64,000 nt of DNA, taken from assembly GCF_019891175.1 (NCBI RefSeq), contig NZ_CP072600.1, forward strand, positions 248,001 to 312,000, read 5' to 3'. The stretch comes from Leptothermofonsia sichuanensis E412 (lineage in GTDB: Bacteria > Cyanobacteriota > Cyanobacteriia > Leptolyngbyales > Leptolyngbyaceae). This document shows, piece after piece, positions 2 to 57,947 of this stretch (position 1 is the first letter of the stretch; each line of letters starts with the position of its first letter). Below the pieces are notes generated by a model. The model searched no databases and had not been told where the DNA came from. It saw only the letters and a program-made list of their open reading frames with translations. The translations under genes and the position numbers were made by a program.

Positions 2-2365
2 ATAACTCAAATTTTCATCCATCCCTATGCCGGTGTGCTGTCTGCCTATGGGATTGGACTGGCGGATGTGCGATCGCTACGAGAAAAGGCGGTGGAGGCG
101 GAATTAAGCGAACGTATATTGCCTGAAATAACCCGCCTGCTGGATGGGATCGCCGCAGAGGGACGGGCTGAAATTGTCCAGCAGGGGATTGAAGTTTCTC
201 GCATTCATGTCCTGCTCAAAGTCCATCTTCGCTATGCTGGAACCGATTCTGCCTTAGTCGTGGACTTTGGCGATCCGGAAACCATGCGCTCCCAGTTTGA
301 ACAGATCTATCAGCAGCGGTATGGCTTCACCATGCCAGATAAGGCTCTGATTGTGGAAGCGGTTTCTATCGAAGCGATCGGGCAAACCAGTGATATTGAA
401 GAACCCTTGCTGACCGTGGACAGCCAGCAACCCCCTATCCCCACAGCCAGGGCACGAATGTATACCAGAGGCGCCTGGCACGATGCGCCTGTTTATCTAC
501 GCAGCGATCTCAGACCCGGCCATCGCATTTTTGGAGCCGCCCTGATTATTGAGCCGACCGGGACCAACGTGATTGAACCGGGCTGGTCAGCAGAACTCAC
601 CTGTCGCAATCATTTGATTCTGAAACGAGCACACGAGGATAGGGAAGGGTTGCTGAATCGCCCGATGAATTGGGACAACGCTTCCATTCATACAATTCCT
701 GATTCATCCCCAGAATCTGCAACGCCGGATGGGAGAGATGAAGCGATCGGAAAGCCGGAAGCTAGCGGTCATGATTCCAGGGTTTTCAGCACTGCGGCCT
801 TCTCTCTGAATACGAAACCGGACCCTGTATTACTGGAAATTTTCAACAATCTGGTGCGGGCGATCGCCGAGGAAATGGGCATTACTTTGCAAAACACGAG
901 TTATTCCGTCAACATCAAGGAACGGCTCGATTTTTCCTGCGCCATTTTTGACCAGCAGGGACAGTTAGTTGCCAATGCACCCCATATCCCAGTCCATCTG
1001 GGTTCTATGGGCGAAAGTGTCAAAAGTTTAATCCAGGCAAAGGGCAATTCCCTCAAACCGGGTGACGCCTACGCTTCCAACAATCCCTACAACGGCGGCA
1101 CCCATTTACCGGATATCACCGTCATCACCCCCGTTTTTGTCTCTCCTTCTTCTTCCACCCCGCCTCGCCCTCTCTTTTATGTCGCCTCACGGGGACACCA
1201 CGCTGACATCGGCGGGATTACCCCAGGTTCCATGCCACCTGCCAGTACAGCGATCGACCAGGAAGGAGTATTGCTGGATAACGTGCAAATTGTGGAGCAG
1301 GGACGATTTCGAGAAGCTGAATTATTGGAATTACTGACGGCTGGTCCCTATCCGGCACGTAATCCAGTTCAAAATTTAGCTGATTTACAAGCCCAGATCG
1401 CGGCGAATGAGCGGGGGGTACAGGAACTCCGGCGCATGGTGTCCCATTACGGACTGGCAACAGTACAGGCCTATATGCAACACGTTCAGGACAATGCAGA
1501 AGCGGCGGTGCGGCGCGTGCTGAGTGTGCTGAAAGATGGCCGCTTTACTTACCCAATGGACGATGGCAGCCAGATTCAAGTCAAAATCACCATTGATTCC
1601 CAGGAACGCTCCGCCTGTATCGATTTCACTGGCACATCCCCTCAACAATCGACCAACTTGAATGCACCCCAGGCAATTTGTAAAGCGGTGGTGCTTTATG
1701 TGTTTCGTACCCTGGTCGAGGATGATATTCCGCTGAATGCCGGCTGTCTCAAACCGTTGCAGATTGTGATTCCAGAGGGATGTCTGCTGAACCCCCACTA
1801 TCCGGCGGCAGTGGTGGCTGGCAATGTGGAAACCTCCCAGGCGATCGCCAACGCCCTCTATGGAGCACTGGGTGTGATGGCGGCTTCCCAGGGCACCATG
1901 AACAATTTCACCTTTGGCAATGACCAGTACCAGTACTACGAAACGATCTGTGGGGGGTCTGGCGCTGGGGCAACCTTCAACGGTACGGATGCCGTCCACA
2001 CTCATATGACCAACTCCCGGCTGACTGACCCAGAGGTACTGGAATGGCGGTTCCCGGTTCTGGTACAGGACTTTGCGATTCGTCCTCACAGTGGAGGGCA
2101 GGGCAAATACCAGGGTGGCAATGGTGTGATTCGACGGATTCTATTTCGGGAAGCAATGACCGCCGCTATTCTGTCCAGCCATCGAGTGATTCCCCCCTTT
2201 GGCCTGGCGGGCGGCCAACCTGGTGCAACGGGACGTAATACCGTGGAACGTCAGGAGGGTACGATTGAAATCCTCCCCAGCAGGGCAGCCGTGCAGATGA
2301 ACCCTGGTGATGTGTTTGTGGTTGAAACGCCAGGTGGAGGAGGATTTGGCAGCCCACTAACATGA
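2..2365 (+). CDS. 5-oxoprolinase / hydantoinase (HyuA-HyuB fusion), 5' end missing
   Basis: This reading frame is open to the left edge, so the gene starts outside the window; about 787 C-terminal residues are present of a protein that is normally 1,200-1,300 residues. The family hydrolyses 5-oxoproline to glutamate with ATP, in the cytosol (glutathione turnover). The first residues (IHPYAGVLSAYGIGLADV) match the end of the HyuA-like ATPase half. A variable linker follows at about residues 205-250. The HyuB-like half then starts near FNNLVRAIAEEMG and runs through SNNPYNGGTHLPDITVITP to a glycine-rich end, TPGGGGFG. A hydantoinase of related specificity cannot be excluded without the N-terminus. 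It ends in TGA 78 bases before the next gene. Confidence 0.88.
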   Translation: MTQIFIHPYAGVLSAYGIGLADVRSLREKAVEAELSERILPEITRLLDGIAAEGRAEIVQQGIEVSRIHVLLKVHLRYAGTDSALVVDFGDPETMRSQFEQIYQQRYGFTMPDKALIVEAVSIEAIGQTSDIEEPLLTVDSQQPPIPTARARMYTRGAWHDAPVYLRSDLRPGHRIFGAALIIEPTGTNVIEPGWSAELTCRNHLILKRAHEDREGLLNRPMNWDNASIHTIPDSSPESATPDGRDEAIGKPEASGHDSRVFSTAAFSLNTKPDPVLLEIFNNLVRAIAEEMGITLQNTSYSVNIKERLDFSCAIFDQQGQLVANAPHIPVHLGSMGESVKSLIQAKGNSLKPGDAYASNNPYNGGTHLPDITVITPVFVSPSSSTPPRPLFYVASRGHHADIGGITPGSMPPASTAIDQEGVLLDNVQIVEQGRFREAELLELLTAGPYPARNPVQNLADLQAQIAANERGVQELRRMVSHYGLATVQAYMQHVQDNAEAAVRRVLSVLKDGRFTYPMDDGSQIQVKITIDSQERSACIDFTGTSPQQSTNLNAPQAICKAVVLYVFRTLVEDDIPLNAGCLKPLQIVIPEGCLLNPHYPAAVVAGNVETSQAIANALYGALGVMAASQGTMNNFTFGNDQYQYYETICGGSGAGATFNGTDAVHTHMTNSRLTDPEVLEWRFPVLVQDFAIRPHSGGQGKYQGGNGVIRRILFREAMTAAILSSHRVIPPFGLAGGQPGATGRNTVERQEGTIEILPSRAAVQMNPGDVFVVETPGGGGFGSPLT

Positions 2366-2719: not shown

Positions 2720-2779
2720 ATGGGTTTAGATGACGATCAGGTTAGGGGTTGACATTGTTGGCTTTGGGTATGGATTGAA

Positions 2780-2835
2780 CATTGCTGAACATTGCATGAA
2801 TGGAAACGTCGTTCCAATTTATTGGGCGATTCAAG
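2780..2835. repeat. degenerate copy of the ~80 bp MITE-like repeat
   Basis: ATTGCTGAAC at the left, a central GAAACGTCGTTCC and GGCGATTCAA at the right match the element family seen intact at 54051-54130. The ends are eroded and no target duplication is visible. It lies in the 121-base gap between two 3' ends. Confidence 0.55.
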
Positions 2836-4116: not shown

Positions 4117-4188
4117 CGGCTGCTTCTAACGGGCAATTTAACCACCTGCCAGCCATTTTAGAAGATCGCTGAGAAAGAAGATCGCTTG

Positions 4189-4244
4189 TGGTGCTGAATA
4201 GCAGGATGAATTGAAATTTCATTTCAATTAAATCCTGAAAATAC
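4189..4244. repeat. truncated copy of the ~80 bp MITE-like repeat
   Basis: GTGCTGAATAGCAGGATG then GAATTGAAATTTCATTTC and AATCCTGAAAATACC resemble one end and the central hairpin of the element. The far end is missing. Confidence 0.6.
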
Positions 4245-11598: not shown

Positions 11599-11724
11599 AT
11601 ATTTCATTCTTTCAGAGTAATCCTGATTTGGGTCGTGAGGGAGAATTCAGCAGGAGTGCTTTCTCACACATTTGTTTCTTCTCACAATTGATTTAGAGCC
11701 TGGTAAAAAATAACTGTGCTCCCC

Positions 11725-11805
11725 GGTGATGCTGAATAGCAGCATGAATTAGAATGACGTTTCAATTCATACAAGGCTGAATTCATACCCGAGATCAGCA
11801 ACGCC
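11725..11805 (+). mobile_element. MITE-like element, 81 bp, with target duplication
   Basis: Starts GGTGATGCTGAATAG, ends GATCAGCAACGCC, with a central GACGTTTCAATTCAT. The 9-base sequence GTGCTCCCC occurs directly on both sides (11716-11724 and 11806-11814), as expected for a transposed element. Confidence 0.8.
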
Positions 11806-12039
11806 GTGCTCCCCTGGTTGCGAGGTGGAGGCTTTGTTGCGGGAAAGTGCGAATTTATTTCTCAACCACCCTTATTAGGACTGCTGTATATTCATTGGAA
11901 TCAGAGCTGGAACCTGGCTCTGATTTTTTGTTGTAATTTGTGGTTGAAAGGAGGTCAGTGTATATGGCCGGTGTCAGGTGTCAGGTGTCAGGAGAGGCAA
12001 GGACGACAAGCAACCTATACAAGAGTGCCAGGAATTTGC

Positions 12040-13937: not shown

Positions 13938-14020
13938 CTGCTGAAAAGCTTATACCAATTGAAGTGAGCATGCCCTATGAGTTGAAACGTCGTTCCAGGT
14001 CACACGGCGATTCAGCAACA
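13938..14020 (-). mobile_element. MITE-like element, degenerate copy
   Basis: CTGCTGAAAAGC at the left, GTTGAAACGTCGTTCCAGG in the interior and CGATTCAGCAACA at the right match the family in the reverse orientation. No clear target duplication. Confidence 0.6.
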
Positions 14021-14122
14021 CTCTTCTTCCAGAGAGCGAGTCTGTGTATGGGGTGGGCGATCGCCTCCGAAAACTGCCGTCACAATTACTCATCCTTTCG
14101 GAGTGTCCTGCAATTCTGACAA

Positions 14123-18700: not shown

Positions 18701-18761
18701 CTATTGATTCATGGTCTTTGCATCCATTGCAGGAAACGACCTATAGCGATCCTATCTGGAT

Positions 18762-18796
18762 TGTGAGAAAGGATTCCCCAGGAATCCTTTCTCACA
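18762..18796. terminator. perfect 16 bp hairpin
   Basis: TGTGAGAAAGGATTCC and GGAATCCTTTCTCACA are exact complements around a 3-base loop. It lies upstream of the ferredoxin gene and may terminate readthrough from hisZ. No U-run follows, so it may simply be a repeat; a related TTTCTCACA / CTCACAATTGATTTAG stretch lies at 11660-11695. Confidence 0.45.
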
Positions 18797-18864
18797 AAGC
18801 CTCTCACTCTCACAACTGATTTAGGACTGCTACATAATTCATGACCTTTGGGAGAGGAAAGACT

Positions 18865-26150: not shown

Positions 26151-26759
26151 ATGCTGAGTCAACTCGAACGAACTGAAAATACTATCCAAATTAATCCCTT
26201 ACTGCTGCAAGGGGTGCTGGAAGGCATGACTGACGGCATCCTCATTTTGTCTGAGGAAGGTGATGTAGTTTATCACAACTACTATGCTCATAGTATTTGC
26301 CAGCAGCTAGATCCGGAGAAAACGATTAATCAGGGGATTCCTGAAGCAATCTGGCGGAACTGTCAGGCGTTGATTGACAGCCGCGACATTTACTCAGATC
26401 AACCTGTTGTGATTGAGTCTGATCTTAGCCTCAGTCCATCCAGGGTATATCGAATTCGGGTCCGGTGGCTGGTACTGGAGGATCCTCAACGCCCTTACCT
26501 GGTTGTTTTGCTGGAGGATCGCTGCCAATCATCCCACAACCGGGCACTGGCGGAAGCAATCCTGTACAACCTGACTCCCCGGCAAGCAGAGGTGTGGCTA
26601 CTGCGCCGTGCAGGGTTCAGCTATCAGCAGATAGCAGTTGAGCTGTTTATTACGGTCAATACTGTGAAGCGCCACATGAAAGAAATTCACGTTAAGCGAA
26701 AAATGGCGATTGACCCTGAGTATTCAGAACCACCCAGGGTAGAGGCAGGGTATTGCTGA
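26151..26759 (+). CDS. PAS-like sensor with LuxR-type HTH
   Basis: 202 residues from ATG 26151 (MLSQLERTENTIQ). A PAS-like sensor (about 20-125: LLQGVLEGMTDGILILSEEG, VYHNYYAHSICQQL, YRIRVRWLVLED) is followed by a GerE/LuxR helix-turn-helix (about 145-195: LTPRQAEVWLLRRAGFSYQQ, IAVELFITVNTVKRHMKEIH). Transcription regulator of unknown target; the signal is not predictable, and no cofactor-binding residue stands out. The last codons and the stop (TATTGCTGA) lie in a MITE-like repeat, which may have changed the C-terminus. Confidence 0.8.
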   Translation: MLSQLERTENTIQINPLLLQGVLEGMTDGILILSEEGDVVYHNYYAHSICQQLDPEKTINQGIPEAIWRNCQALIDSRDIYSDQPVVIESDLSLSPSRVYRIRVRWLVLEDPQRPYLVVLLEDRCQSSHNRALAEAILYNLTPRQAEVWLLRRAGFSYQQIAVELFITVNTVKRHMKEIHVKRKMAIDPEYSEPPRVEAGYC

Positions 26760-26803
26760 ACACACCCATTGAGACTTCAATTCATAGGATTGTTCAGCAG
26801 TAG
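26751..26803. repeat. partial MITE-like copy at the 3' end of the LuxR-type gene
   Basis: TATTGCTGAACACACCC ... GACTTCAATTCATAGG ... TGTTCAGCAG keeps both ends in short form. It provides the TGA of the upstream gene. Confidence 0.55.
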
Positions 26804-26815
26804 CTCATATCACAC

Positions 26816-34330: not shown

Positions 34331-34718
34331 TGCGGCAATATAGAGCTTTTGGATCAGGGATTTCAGACCTGGAGACTATAAATAATAATGGGATATACGA
34401 CGCTTTCAAGTTGCACACGGCATAATCAAGTTCCAGAAAGGGATAGGACGTTGGACCAATTGGAACAACGGTTCAATTTATACGACTGTTTAATATCACT
34501 GGCAGGATAGTGACTGTGAAACCTGGTTATTCCCAGCCTAACCTAACATCAACAGGGATTTAACAAAAATCTCTGAGGTATATTTCAGAGACTGCTTATG
34601 ACGGCTTTCTGAAATACTTCTACATAATTTATCCAATTTCTCTGAGAAATCTCCCCAGAGTAGGCAGTAATTTCTGATAGAATTTTACGAAAAGTTAAGA
34701 AATTGTCACCATTCTCTA

Positions 34719-46026: not shown

Positions 46027-46054
46027 CTTGAAGCCTTCAAGTCAAACCTTTGCA

Positions 46055-46149
46055 GGGGTTGCTGATTCTGCATATGAAAAAGGTGCTACATGCTTGGGTG
46101 CTATATGCCTGAAAGTGCGTTTCGATTCATATTGCTTTTCAGCAACGCC
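46055..46149 (-). mobile_element. MITE-like element, 95 bp, with 8 bp target duplication
   Basis: GGGGTTGCTGATTCTGC to CTTTTCAGCAACGCC, lying in reverse orientation relative to the copy at 48112. CCTTTGCA occurs directly on each side (46047-46054 and 46150-46157). Confidence 0.85.
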
Positions 46150-46157
46150 CCTTTGCA

Positions 46158-48032: not shown

Positions 48033-48111
48033 ATCGGAGAAGAGATTTGCGGTAGGGAAGAGTGGGAAGCAGTGGAGTTGGATGCCTGCCAGTTCTGGTT
48101 GCCTGGGCAGG

Positions 48112-48192
48112 GGCGTTGCTGAAAAGCTGGATGAATTGAAACTTCGTTTCAATTCATCCAGGACCTTTTTCATCCCCAGATTTAGCAATGCC
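48112..48192 (+). mobile_element. MITE-like element, 81 bp
   Basis: GGCGTTGCTGAAAAGCTGG to ATTTAGCAATGCC, with the central hairpin ATGAATTGAAACTTCGTTTC-AATTCAT. The 10-base CCTGGGCAGG lies directly before it (48102-48111) and one base after it (48194-48203). Nearly the reverse complement of the copy at 54051. Confidence 0.85.
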
Positions 48193-48225
48193 ACCTGGGC
48201 AGGTAAGGGAACTCCGATGGAACAA

Positions 48226-50321: not shown

Positions 50322-50371
50322 TGGTGTTCCCTCAGGAAAATTTTGACGGGGCATAGACCCTCAAAATTTAG
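50322..50371 (+). repeat. family 3 repeat, left part, interrupted by a MITE-like element
   Basis: GGTGTTCCCTCAGGAAAATT then TTGACGGGGCATAGACCCTC and AAAATTTAG; compare 40199-40250. The continuation (CCATTCCCTGATCAAG) resumes at 50461 after the inserted element. Confidence 0.7.
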
Positions 50372-50452
50372 AGCATTGCTGAATCTGGGTCTGAATTAGA
50401 GCATGGATGAATTGAAACTTCGTTCCAATTCATACGGCTATTCAGCAGCACC
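50372..50452 (-). mobile_element. MITE-like element, 81 bp, with 8 bp target duplication
   Basis: AGCATTGCTGAATCTGGG to CTATTCAGCAGCACC, reverse orientation. AAATTTAG flanks it directly (50364-50371 and 50453-50460). It sits inside a family 3 repeat. Confidence 0.85.
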
Positions 50453-50499
50453 AAATTTAGCCATTCCCTGATCAAGTCTAGAATCTAATGTCCAATTCC

Positions 50500-54018: not shown

Positions 54019-54050
54019 ACAAAGGCACAAAAGACACAAAGGAATGGCTC
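54019..54050. repeat. CACAAAG-type repeat, left part, split by a MITE-like element
   Basis: CACAAAGGCACAAAAGACAC then AAAGGAATGGCTC; the sequence continues at 54131 (AATGGCTCTATGTTTTCTGG), matching the undivided copy near 36780. Confidence 0.65.
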
Positions 54051-54130
54051 GGCGTTGCTAAATCTGGAGATGAAAAAAGTGCAGGATGAATTGAAACTTG
54101 TTTCAATTCATCCTGCTTTTCAGCAACGCC
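54051..54130 (-). mobile_element. MITE-like element, 80 bp, best-preserved copy
   Basis: Ends GGCGTTGCTAAATC and GCTTTTCAGCAACGCC; inner hairpin GGATGAATTGAAAC/GTTTCAATTCATCC near the right end. AATGGCTC is duplicated directly on each side (54043-54050, 54131-54138). No coding capacity. Confidence 0.92.
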
Positions 54131-54330
54131 AATGGCTCTATGTTTTCTGGGCCTCTGGGGTAGAGTTCTAAGTTTTTGGGTTGATTGAATCCACACCCCT
54201 GAGGTTTTCCTTCAAAAACACTTCAAAAACAAATGAGTGGAATCAACCCGGTTGAGGTTTAATCAGATTGGGAGATTTATAGCATCATAAGTAGTCAAGT
54301 TTCTCGGTTGGATTGGTTGAAAGAAGGGTC

Positions 54331-57556: not shown

Positions 57557-57908
57557 TATCTGTTCCAATCGGTTTACCTATGTAGCAGATGACACAGGGA
57601 CGATCGCCGGGTTTGCAGAGTTAGAGCCAGATGGTCACATTGATTGCTTTTACTGTCATAAAAACTATCAGCGGTGTGGCGTGGGAAGGCAGCTTTATCA
57701 GGCGATTGAAGCCAGGGCGCGTGATCAGGGAATTCGCTATCTAACGGTTGAAGCAAGTATTACAGCCCAACCATTTTTTCAACGGATGGGGTTTTCTCTG
57801 ATTAAAGAACAGGAGACTGCTTGCCGGGGTGAAACTTTCACCAATTATGTAATGGAAAAGTGGCTGGAGCCAGATGAGTTGAAAGTCCTCAATTCATACA
57901 ACCTTTAA
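57557..57908 (+). pseudogene. GNAT acetyltransferase, 3' part
   Basis: Continues the interrupted gene: ICSNRFTYVADDTGTIAGFA, acetyl-CoA motif A NYQRCGVGRQLYQAIEARAR (the QxxGxG/A-type loop), then GIRYLTVEASITAQPFFQRM and GFSLIKEQE. No start of its own near the junction, so it is not expected to make a working enzyme. Confidence 0.88.
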
Positions 57909-57947
57909 TTCATACCCCGAATTAGTCCCCCCACGCTGGCATACGGG

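What the first reader, a model, noticed from the sequence alone, without database searches (positions are those of the whole stretch)
54043..54138. A MITE-like element family with target duplications, at least nine copies in 64 kb
An 80-95 bp non-coding element recurs with ends GGCGTTGCT.AA and TTCAGCAACGCC and an inner GAATTGAAAC/GTTTCAATTC hairpin placed nearer one end. Copies: 54051-54130, 48112-48192, 50372-50452, 46055-46149 and 11725-11805; weaker ones at 13938-14020, 26751-26803, 4189-4244 and 2780-2835. The copies at 48112 and 54051 are almost reverse complements of each other, so both orientations occur. Direct duplications AATGGCTC, AAATTTAG, CCTTTGCA and GTGCTCCCC abut four copies; CCTGGGCAGG frames a fifth, one base off on one side. 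The pattern means transposition by an enzyme encoded elsewhere, with an 8-9 bp target cut.
Basis: seen in the sequence. Interest (0 to 1): 0.8.

Follow-up and report, generated by a model that had tools for sequence, protein, structure and literature searches.

The report
Orphan 80-bp jumping-DNA family in cyanobacterium
The 80-base repeat is a real, non-coding mobile element (a MITE) present in an estimated 400 copies in the genome of a hot-spring cyanobacterium; it jumped leaving mostly 8-base target duplications, but no insertion sequence found in that genome carries the same ends, so it is an ordinary kind of element whose driving enzyme is missing.

Summary
Confirmed. The window lies in a 6,426,061-bp single-contig cyanobacterial genome, the exact size of Leptothermofonsia sichuanensis E412 (PMC8997340, whose text does not mention MITEs). 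All five strong copies and their target-site duplications (TSDs) are as described; a profile adds a full copy at 647-726 and a weaker one at 57860-57926. In 2.15 Mb sampled there are 141 copies, about 420 genome-wide by extrapolation, in three subfamilies of 78-81 bp; some unlinked copies are identical. TSDs flank 51 of 115 near-full copies and 0 of 1150 displaced controls. Exact TSDs are mostly 8 bp but range 7-17. Two insertions have an uninterrupted paralogous site with one TSD copy. Elements with the same bipartite ends and 8-10 bp TSDs occur in other cyanobacteria. The predicted mobilising IS was not found: the genome's 72 strict ends show no IS-length pairing, and 20 unpaired ones examined were 18 MITEs and two truncated copies. 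The closest IS ends (IS5/IS903 group, 10-11 of 13 bases) belong to elements making 9-bp TSDs, present here only as relics. So: a real, orphan ('type II') MITE family, a new member of a known kind.

The parts
54051..54130 (+). MITE copy, subfamily B, 80 bp
   Evidence: profile E 2.5e-19; uninterrupted paralogous site
54043..54050 (.). left TSD AATGGCTC
   Evidence: sequence
54131..54138 (.). right TSD AATGGCTC
   Evidence: sequence
48112..48192 (-). MITE copy, subfamily B, 81 bp, opposite orientation
   Evidence: CCTGGGCAGG at 48102-48111 and 48194-48203 (one-base offset)
50372..50452 (+). MITE copy, subfamily A, 81 bp
   Evidence: TSD AAATTTAG at 50364-50371 and 50453-50460
46055..46149 (+). 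MITE copy, 95 bp variant
   Evidence: TSD CCTTTGCA at 46047-46054 and 46150-46157
11725..11805 (-). MITE copy, subfamily A, 81 bp
   Evidence: TSD GTGCTCCCC at 11716-11724 and 11806-11814
647..726 (-).
   Evidence: (E 5e-18)
2753..2833 (+). degenerate MITE copy
   Evidence: E 9e-9
4188..4229 (-). partial MITE copy
   Evidence: E 4e-6
13971..14021 (+). partial MITE copy
   Evidence: E 2.8e-7
26749..26804 (.). possible internally deleted MITE copy (56 bp), end motifs only
   Evidence: end pair; not found by the profile
34435..34492 (+). marginal MITE fragment
   Evidence: E 0.001
   Evidence: E 1.1e-9

Best explanation
These are non-autonomous DNA transposons (MITEs). Each is little more than two imperfect, roughly 26-bp terminal inverted repeats with a bipartite motif (GGCRTTGCTGAAT, a spacer, then ATGA starting at base 20), plus a hairpin that folds the inner part of the right end back on itself. 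Shown: dispersal in both orientations, three subfamilies, TSDs far above chance, and uninterrupted target sites holding a single TSD copy. Inferred: a DDE transposase acting in trans recognised the bipartite ends and joined them to staggered cuts, mostly 8 nt (range 7-17), whose repair made the duplications. Most likely that enzyme came from an insertion sequence with the same ends that has been lost from, or never resided on, this chromosome (about 0.6). Less likely, a resident or relic transposase that tolerates diverged ends moved them. Insertions persist mainly between genes.
For: 40 near-full copies at E<1e-14 from one query. 141 copies in 2.152 Mb, with TSDs at 51 of 115 against 0 of 1150 displaced controls. 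Three subfamilies (45, 29 and 23 copies); identical copies at unlinked sites (351331, 510409, 1415329); TSDs in 62% of copies with close relatives and 26% of the rest; 7.8% of copies in ORFs of at least 150 aa against 76.2% of the sequence. Exact TSD lengths 7(2), 8(18), 9(4), 11(2), 13(3), 17(1). Uninterrupted sites for the window copy and for the copy at 631725. Same end motif and 8-10 bp TSDs in genomes of other cyanobacterial genera and families: 157-bp, 124-127-bp and 380-bp elements. The strict 26-bp end occurs 72 times, and ends that pair do so 79-81 bp apart; 18 of 20 unpaired ends examined have a diverged partner about 80-90 bp away and the other two are truncated MITEs.
Against: No transposase with these ends was found, so the trans-mobilisation step rests on the general biology of MITEs. 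An IS with both ends several mismatches from the strict motif could lie in the unsampled two thirds of the genome. Movement was not observed, only inferred from its traces. The 11-17 bp TSDs are unusual for most DDE families and suggest an enzyme that cuts loosely.
Confidence: 0.93

Rival explanations
1. The resident IS1 (858 bp, more than 30 near-identical copies) moves the MITEs in trans.
For: IS1 is the freshest high-copy IS seen here. Its TSD lengths (8, 9 and one of 17 bp) resemble the MITE spectrum in being variable. Both sets of ends share GGnnnTGyT.
Against: Beyond GGnnnTGyT the ends differ (6-7 of 13 bases), and IS1 elements on other cyanobacterial plasmids mostly have GGT..TGTTcTAGA-type ends. 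PF03400 was not searched in the other MITE-bearing genomes.
Confidence: 0.12
2. The MITEs derive from and are moved by an IS5-family element of the IS903/ISAcma6 group.
For: Best match of ends: 10-11 of 13 bases with GGCGTTGTTGCAT/GGCTTTGTTGAAT, a level reached by 2e-5 of genomic 13-mers. The transposase is IS5 family. Relics occur in this genome.
Against: These IS make 9-bp TSDs in all 8 plasmid copies with intact ends (one could be read as 10), whereas MITE TSDs are mostly 8. Only broken copies are present here. No PF13737 hit in G029 or G013, which are rich in the MITE ends. The inner ATGA box is not at the same position.
Confidence: 0.12
3. The MITEs derive from an IS66-like element (GTAATTGCTCAACTGGGG ends).
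For: 8-bp TSDs in all 5 copies with a clean TSD. A gapped match of the left ends is reached by 21 of 20,000 random windows.
Against: Only 7-9 of 13 terminal bases match; the right ends do not match beyond chance; no IS66 transposase in G029, where a related 157-bp MITE looks recently active.
Confidence: 0.08
4. Intergenic functional hairpins (terminators, REP-like repeats) that spread by gene conversion or duplication rather than transposition.
For: Strong hairpins (z about -9) and intergenic bias.
Against: TSDs at fixed ends and uninterrupted sites with one TSD copy are the signature of insertion. A use after insertion is not excluded.
Confidence: 0.03

Closest known systems
Type II (orphan) MITEs of cyanobacteria, as in Anabaena sp. 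90 (PMC3542288: 147 copies, 77-541 bp)
   Same: Short, multicopy, inverted-repeat, mostly intergenic, no IS in the genome with matching ends.
Nezha MITE of cyanobacteria (Zhou et al. 2008, cited in PMC10969869; linked to ISNpu3-like elements in PMC3049150)
   Same: Cyanobacterial MITE attributed to transposases acting in trans.
IS5 family, IS903/ISAcma6 group
   Same: Ends GGC.TTGTTGCAT match 10-11 of 13 MITE end bases.
   Different: 9-bp TSD, about 1060 bp, encodes a transposase; no shared inner box.
IS1 family (resident 858-bp element)
   Same: GGnnnTGyT ends; variable TSD 8, 9, 17 bp.
   Different: The rest of the ends differ; two-ORF transposase.

Membership tests
[quoted passage not shown]
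   78-95 bp; profile length 81
[quoted passage not shown]
   paired GGNNYTGCTGAW...ATGAW ends: 73 pairs against 6 control pairs in 1.1 Mb
[quoted passage not shown]
   51 of 115 against 0 of 1150; exact lengths
[quoted passage not shown]
[quoted passage not shown]
   two clear paralogous uninterrupted sites
Type I MITE (ends shared with a resident IS) | An IS in the same genome with the same ends | tested here: not met
   no IS-length pairing among 72 strict ends genome-wide; none in 2.15 Mb with relaxed ends
IS5 family, IS903 group (as parent) | 9-bp TSD | tested here: not met
   MITE mode is 8 bp; IS controls are 9 bp
IS1 family (as parent) | Ends of the resident or other cyanobacterial IS1 | tested here: not met
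   6-7 of 13 bases; plasmid IS1 ends
IS6, IS1595, ISL3, IS66 (as parent) | Transposase present in MITE-rich genomes | tested here: not met
   IS1595 absent from all four tested; IS6 absent from G029 and G000, where hits are IS1; ISL3 absent from G000, G001, G029; IS66 present in G000 but absent from G029
Nezha | Sequence similarity to Nezha or ISNpu3 | not testable with these tools
   sequences not held; open-access papers name them without the sequence

The most novel reading that the evidence does not exclude
The MITEs are footprints of an undescribed IS group spread across cyanobacteria, defined by a bipartite end (GGC.TTGCTGAAT plus ATGA from base 20) and an unusually loose target stagger of 7-17 bp, whose autonomous member is now rare or extinct.
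Probability: 0.3. Interest if true: 0.45.

Novelty: new member of a known kind. Interest (0 to 1): 0.33.

Why it matters
An estimated 400 copies, some recently mobile, make this one of the main repeat families of the genome, yet the paper that appears to describe this genome counts 431 IS and does not mention MITEs. The same end motif recurs in other cyanobacterial genera and families. That makes it a useful case for asking how MITEs spread when no matching transposase is present, and the bipartite end gives a concrete probe with which to find the missing enzyme.

Tried and rejected
Parent search by family. IS1 (PF03400): present, ends differ. ISKra4 (NF033572): only remnants or an IS256-like element with other ends. 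IS1595: absent. IS66: ends only partly alike and absent from G029. IS903-like (PF13737): best ends but 9-bp TSD and relics only. PF01609 transposases: none with these ends apart from the IS903-like ones; the commonest has CTMAGTACAGGACAAA ends. IS6 and ISL3: absent. An apparent 1033-bp element with MITE ends and TSD AATGTATG (L076:45-1077) is a MITE interrupted by an IS630-like IS, not the parent. Viral contigs with the end pattern gave coding coincidences. Plasmid blastn with MITE sequences gave only shared palindromes or chance matches. Orthologous empty site in a Leptolyngbyaceae relative (L091): the flank is too diverged; that locus carries its own MITE just after the same gene. One regex scan returned nothing and one used a wrong spacer; both were superseded. 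Rfam: only two tRNAs in the window.

Full report
What was checked. The window is G000:C1:248001-312000 of a single-contig genome of 6,426,061 bp. That length is exactly the one reported for the chromosome of Leptothermofonsia sichuanensis E412 (PMC8997340), and the composition (50.9% GC in the window, against 50.8% in the paper) and the aspartokinase relatives (Leptolyngbyaceae) agree. The identification is an inference from the length. That paper lists 431 insertion sequences, mainly IS630, IS1 and IS4, and the words MITE and 'miniature inverted' do not occur in its main text.

The observation. A profile HMM built from end-pair copies finds eleven places in the window. They include the five strong copies, three of the four weak ones, and three that were not listed: 647-726 (full length), 57860-57926 and a marginal 34435-34492.

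More than chance. The 14-base end GGCGTTGCTGAATC with up to 2 mismatches occurs 460 times in the genome against 18 for the reversed pattern. The strict 26-base end occurs 72 times against 0. In the 2.152 Mb that could be held (one third of the genome, stretches not chosen at random), the profile finds 141 non-overlapping copies, 115 of them near full length. By simple extrapolation this is about 420 in the genome. TSDs of at least 7 bp flank 51 of the 115, against none of 1150 displaced controls.

Anatomy. Three subfamilies of 81, 80 and 78 bp hold 45, 29 and 23 sampled copies. The window copies at 50372, 11725 and 647 are subfamily A, and those at 48112 and 54051 are subfamily B. Each element has two imperfect ends with a bipartite motif, GGC.TTGCTGAAT followed by ATGA from base 20. 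The inner hairpin is the inner part of the right end (GGATGAATTGAAAC or GTATGAATTGAAAC) folded back on itself; the whole strand folds with z about -9. Subfamily A includes identical copies at 351331, 510409 and 1415329, so movement has been recent. Copies with close relatives keep perfect TSDs more often (62% against 26%), as expected if TSDs decay with age. Only 7.8% of copies lie in an ORF of at least 150 aa, although such ORFs cover 76% of the sequence. These ORFs are mechanical, not annotated genes.

Proof of insertion. Joining the flanks of the window copy 54051-54130 and removing one TSD gives a sequence that matches, without interruption, a dispersed repeat at G000 1276496-1276596 (L387:4496-4596, 82% over 101 bp; one AATGGCTT where the filled site has two AATGGCTC). 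The copy at 631725 sits inside a different, TA-ended repeat of about 95 bp that exists uninterrupted in about 20 other places, among them window 18742-18830 at 99%, each with a single AGAAAGGA in the copies shown. A third family of uninterrupted repeats gives the same picture for 1168273.

Target cut. With exact element ends, TSD lengths are 7 (2), 8 (18), 9 (4), 11 (2), 13 (3) and 17 (1) among 62 copies, the rest having no exact TSD. Examples are TGTTCTCTGTGCCTCTG (17 bp) at 1324680 and TGAAAAAGTCTGT (13 bp) at 1415329. A 157-bp relative in G029 gives 8 bp in 10 of 11 copies with a TSD. The cut is therefore mostly 8 bp but loose.

Distribution. Among 38 relatives searched with the end pattern, several are as rich as this genome, including genomes outside its family. 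Inspection shows bona fide related elements: 157 bp in G029 with near-identical copies, 124-127 bp in G017, and 380 bp in G026, with TSDs of 8-10 bp. Not every counted match was inspected.

The missing enzyme. A parent IS should carry the same ends at IS distance. The 72 strict ends pair only at 79-81 bp. Twenty unpaired ones were fetched: 18 have a diverged partner about 80-90 bp away, and the other two are truncated copies. A relaxed search in the 2.15 Mb plus transposase loci finds, beyond scattered chance pairs, only IS1, IS66 and the nested case described in the tried-and-rejected section. An IS with considerably diverged ends in the unsampled part cannot be excluded. Of known groups, IS5/IS903-like elements have the most similar ends (10-11 of 13 bases; 2e-5 of genomic 13-mers reach 11), but they make 9-bp TSDs in eight of eight plasmid copies and are only relics here. 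IS1 shares the variable TSD length but not the ends. IS66 shares the 8-bp TSD but only part of one end. None satisfies both criteria, so I leave the mobiliser unidentified and think a lost cognate IS most likely.

Comparison with the known. Orphan or 'type II' MITEs, with no IS of matching ends in the genome, are already described in cyanobacteria (Anabaena sp. 90, PMC3542288), and Nezha is a MITE attributed to ISNpu3-like elements (PMC3049150). The sequences of those elements were not available, so kinship is untested. This family works like a MITE and meets every MITE criterion tested except a matching resident IS, which is required only of type I. It is a new member of a known kind, apparently not described for this genome.

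Noticed in passing
window 18742-18830 and about 20 other places in G000 (e.g. L207:18417-18511, L200:11486-11582): A second short dispersed repeat of about 95 bp with TATAGCGATCCTA...TAGGACTGCTATA ends, up to 99% conserved between copies; TA-ended like IS630-type MITEs.
   Followed up: partly
L178:83-208 and many other G000 places: A third dispersed repeat of at least 127 bp containing TTCACCACAGAGACACAGAGAACACAGAG, which also hosts MITE insertions.
   Followed up: no
L076:45-1077 (G000:C1:50092-51124): A MITE copy with TSD AATGTATG is split by an IS630-like insertion sequence whose transposase lies in two reading frames: a nested insertion.
   Followed up: partly
G000:C1, 42 PF03400 matches; e.g. 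L062:1064-1921, L085: IS1 element of 858 bp in more than 30 near-identical copies, with two overlapping frames as in classical IS1 and TSDs of 8 and 9 bp plus one of 17 bp.
   Followed up: partly
G029 (e.g. L235:641-797, L239:976-1132): A related 157-bp MITE with near-identical copies and 8-bp TSDs in a genome of another cyanobacterial family, with none of the IS1595, IS66, IS6, ISL3 or IS903-type transposases tested.
   Followed up: partly
L091:4899-4978: A relative's aspartokinase gene has a full MITE a few bases after its stop codon, where this genome has none; the window's copy lies upstream of the same gene.
   Followed up: yes
window 54051-54130, hairpin arms: The hairpin arms end in ATTGAAAC, which recalls the common 3' end of many CRISPR repeats (from memory); probably coincidence.
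   Followed up: no
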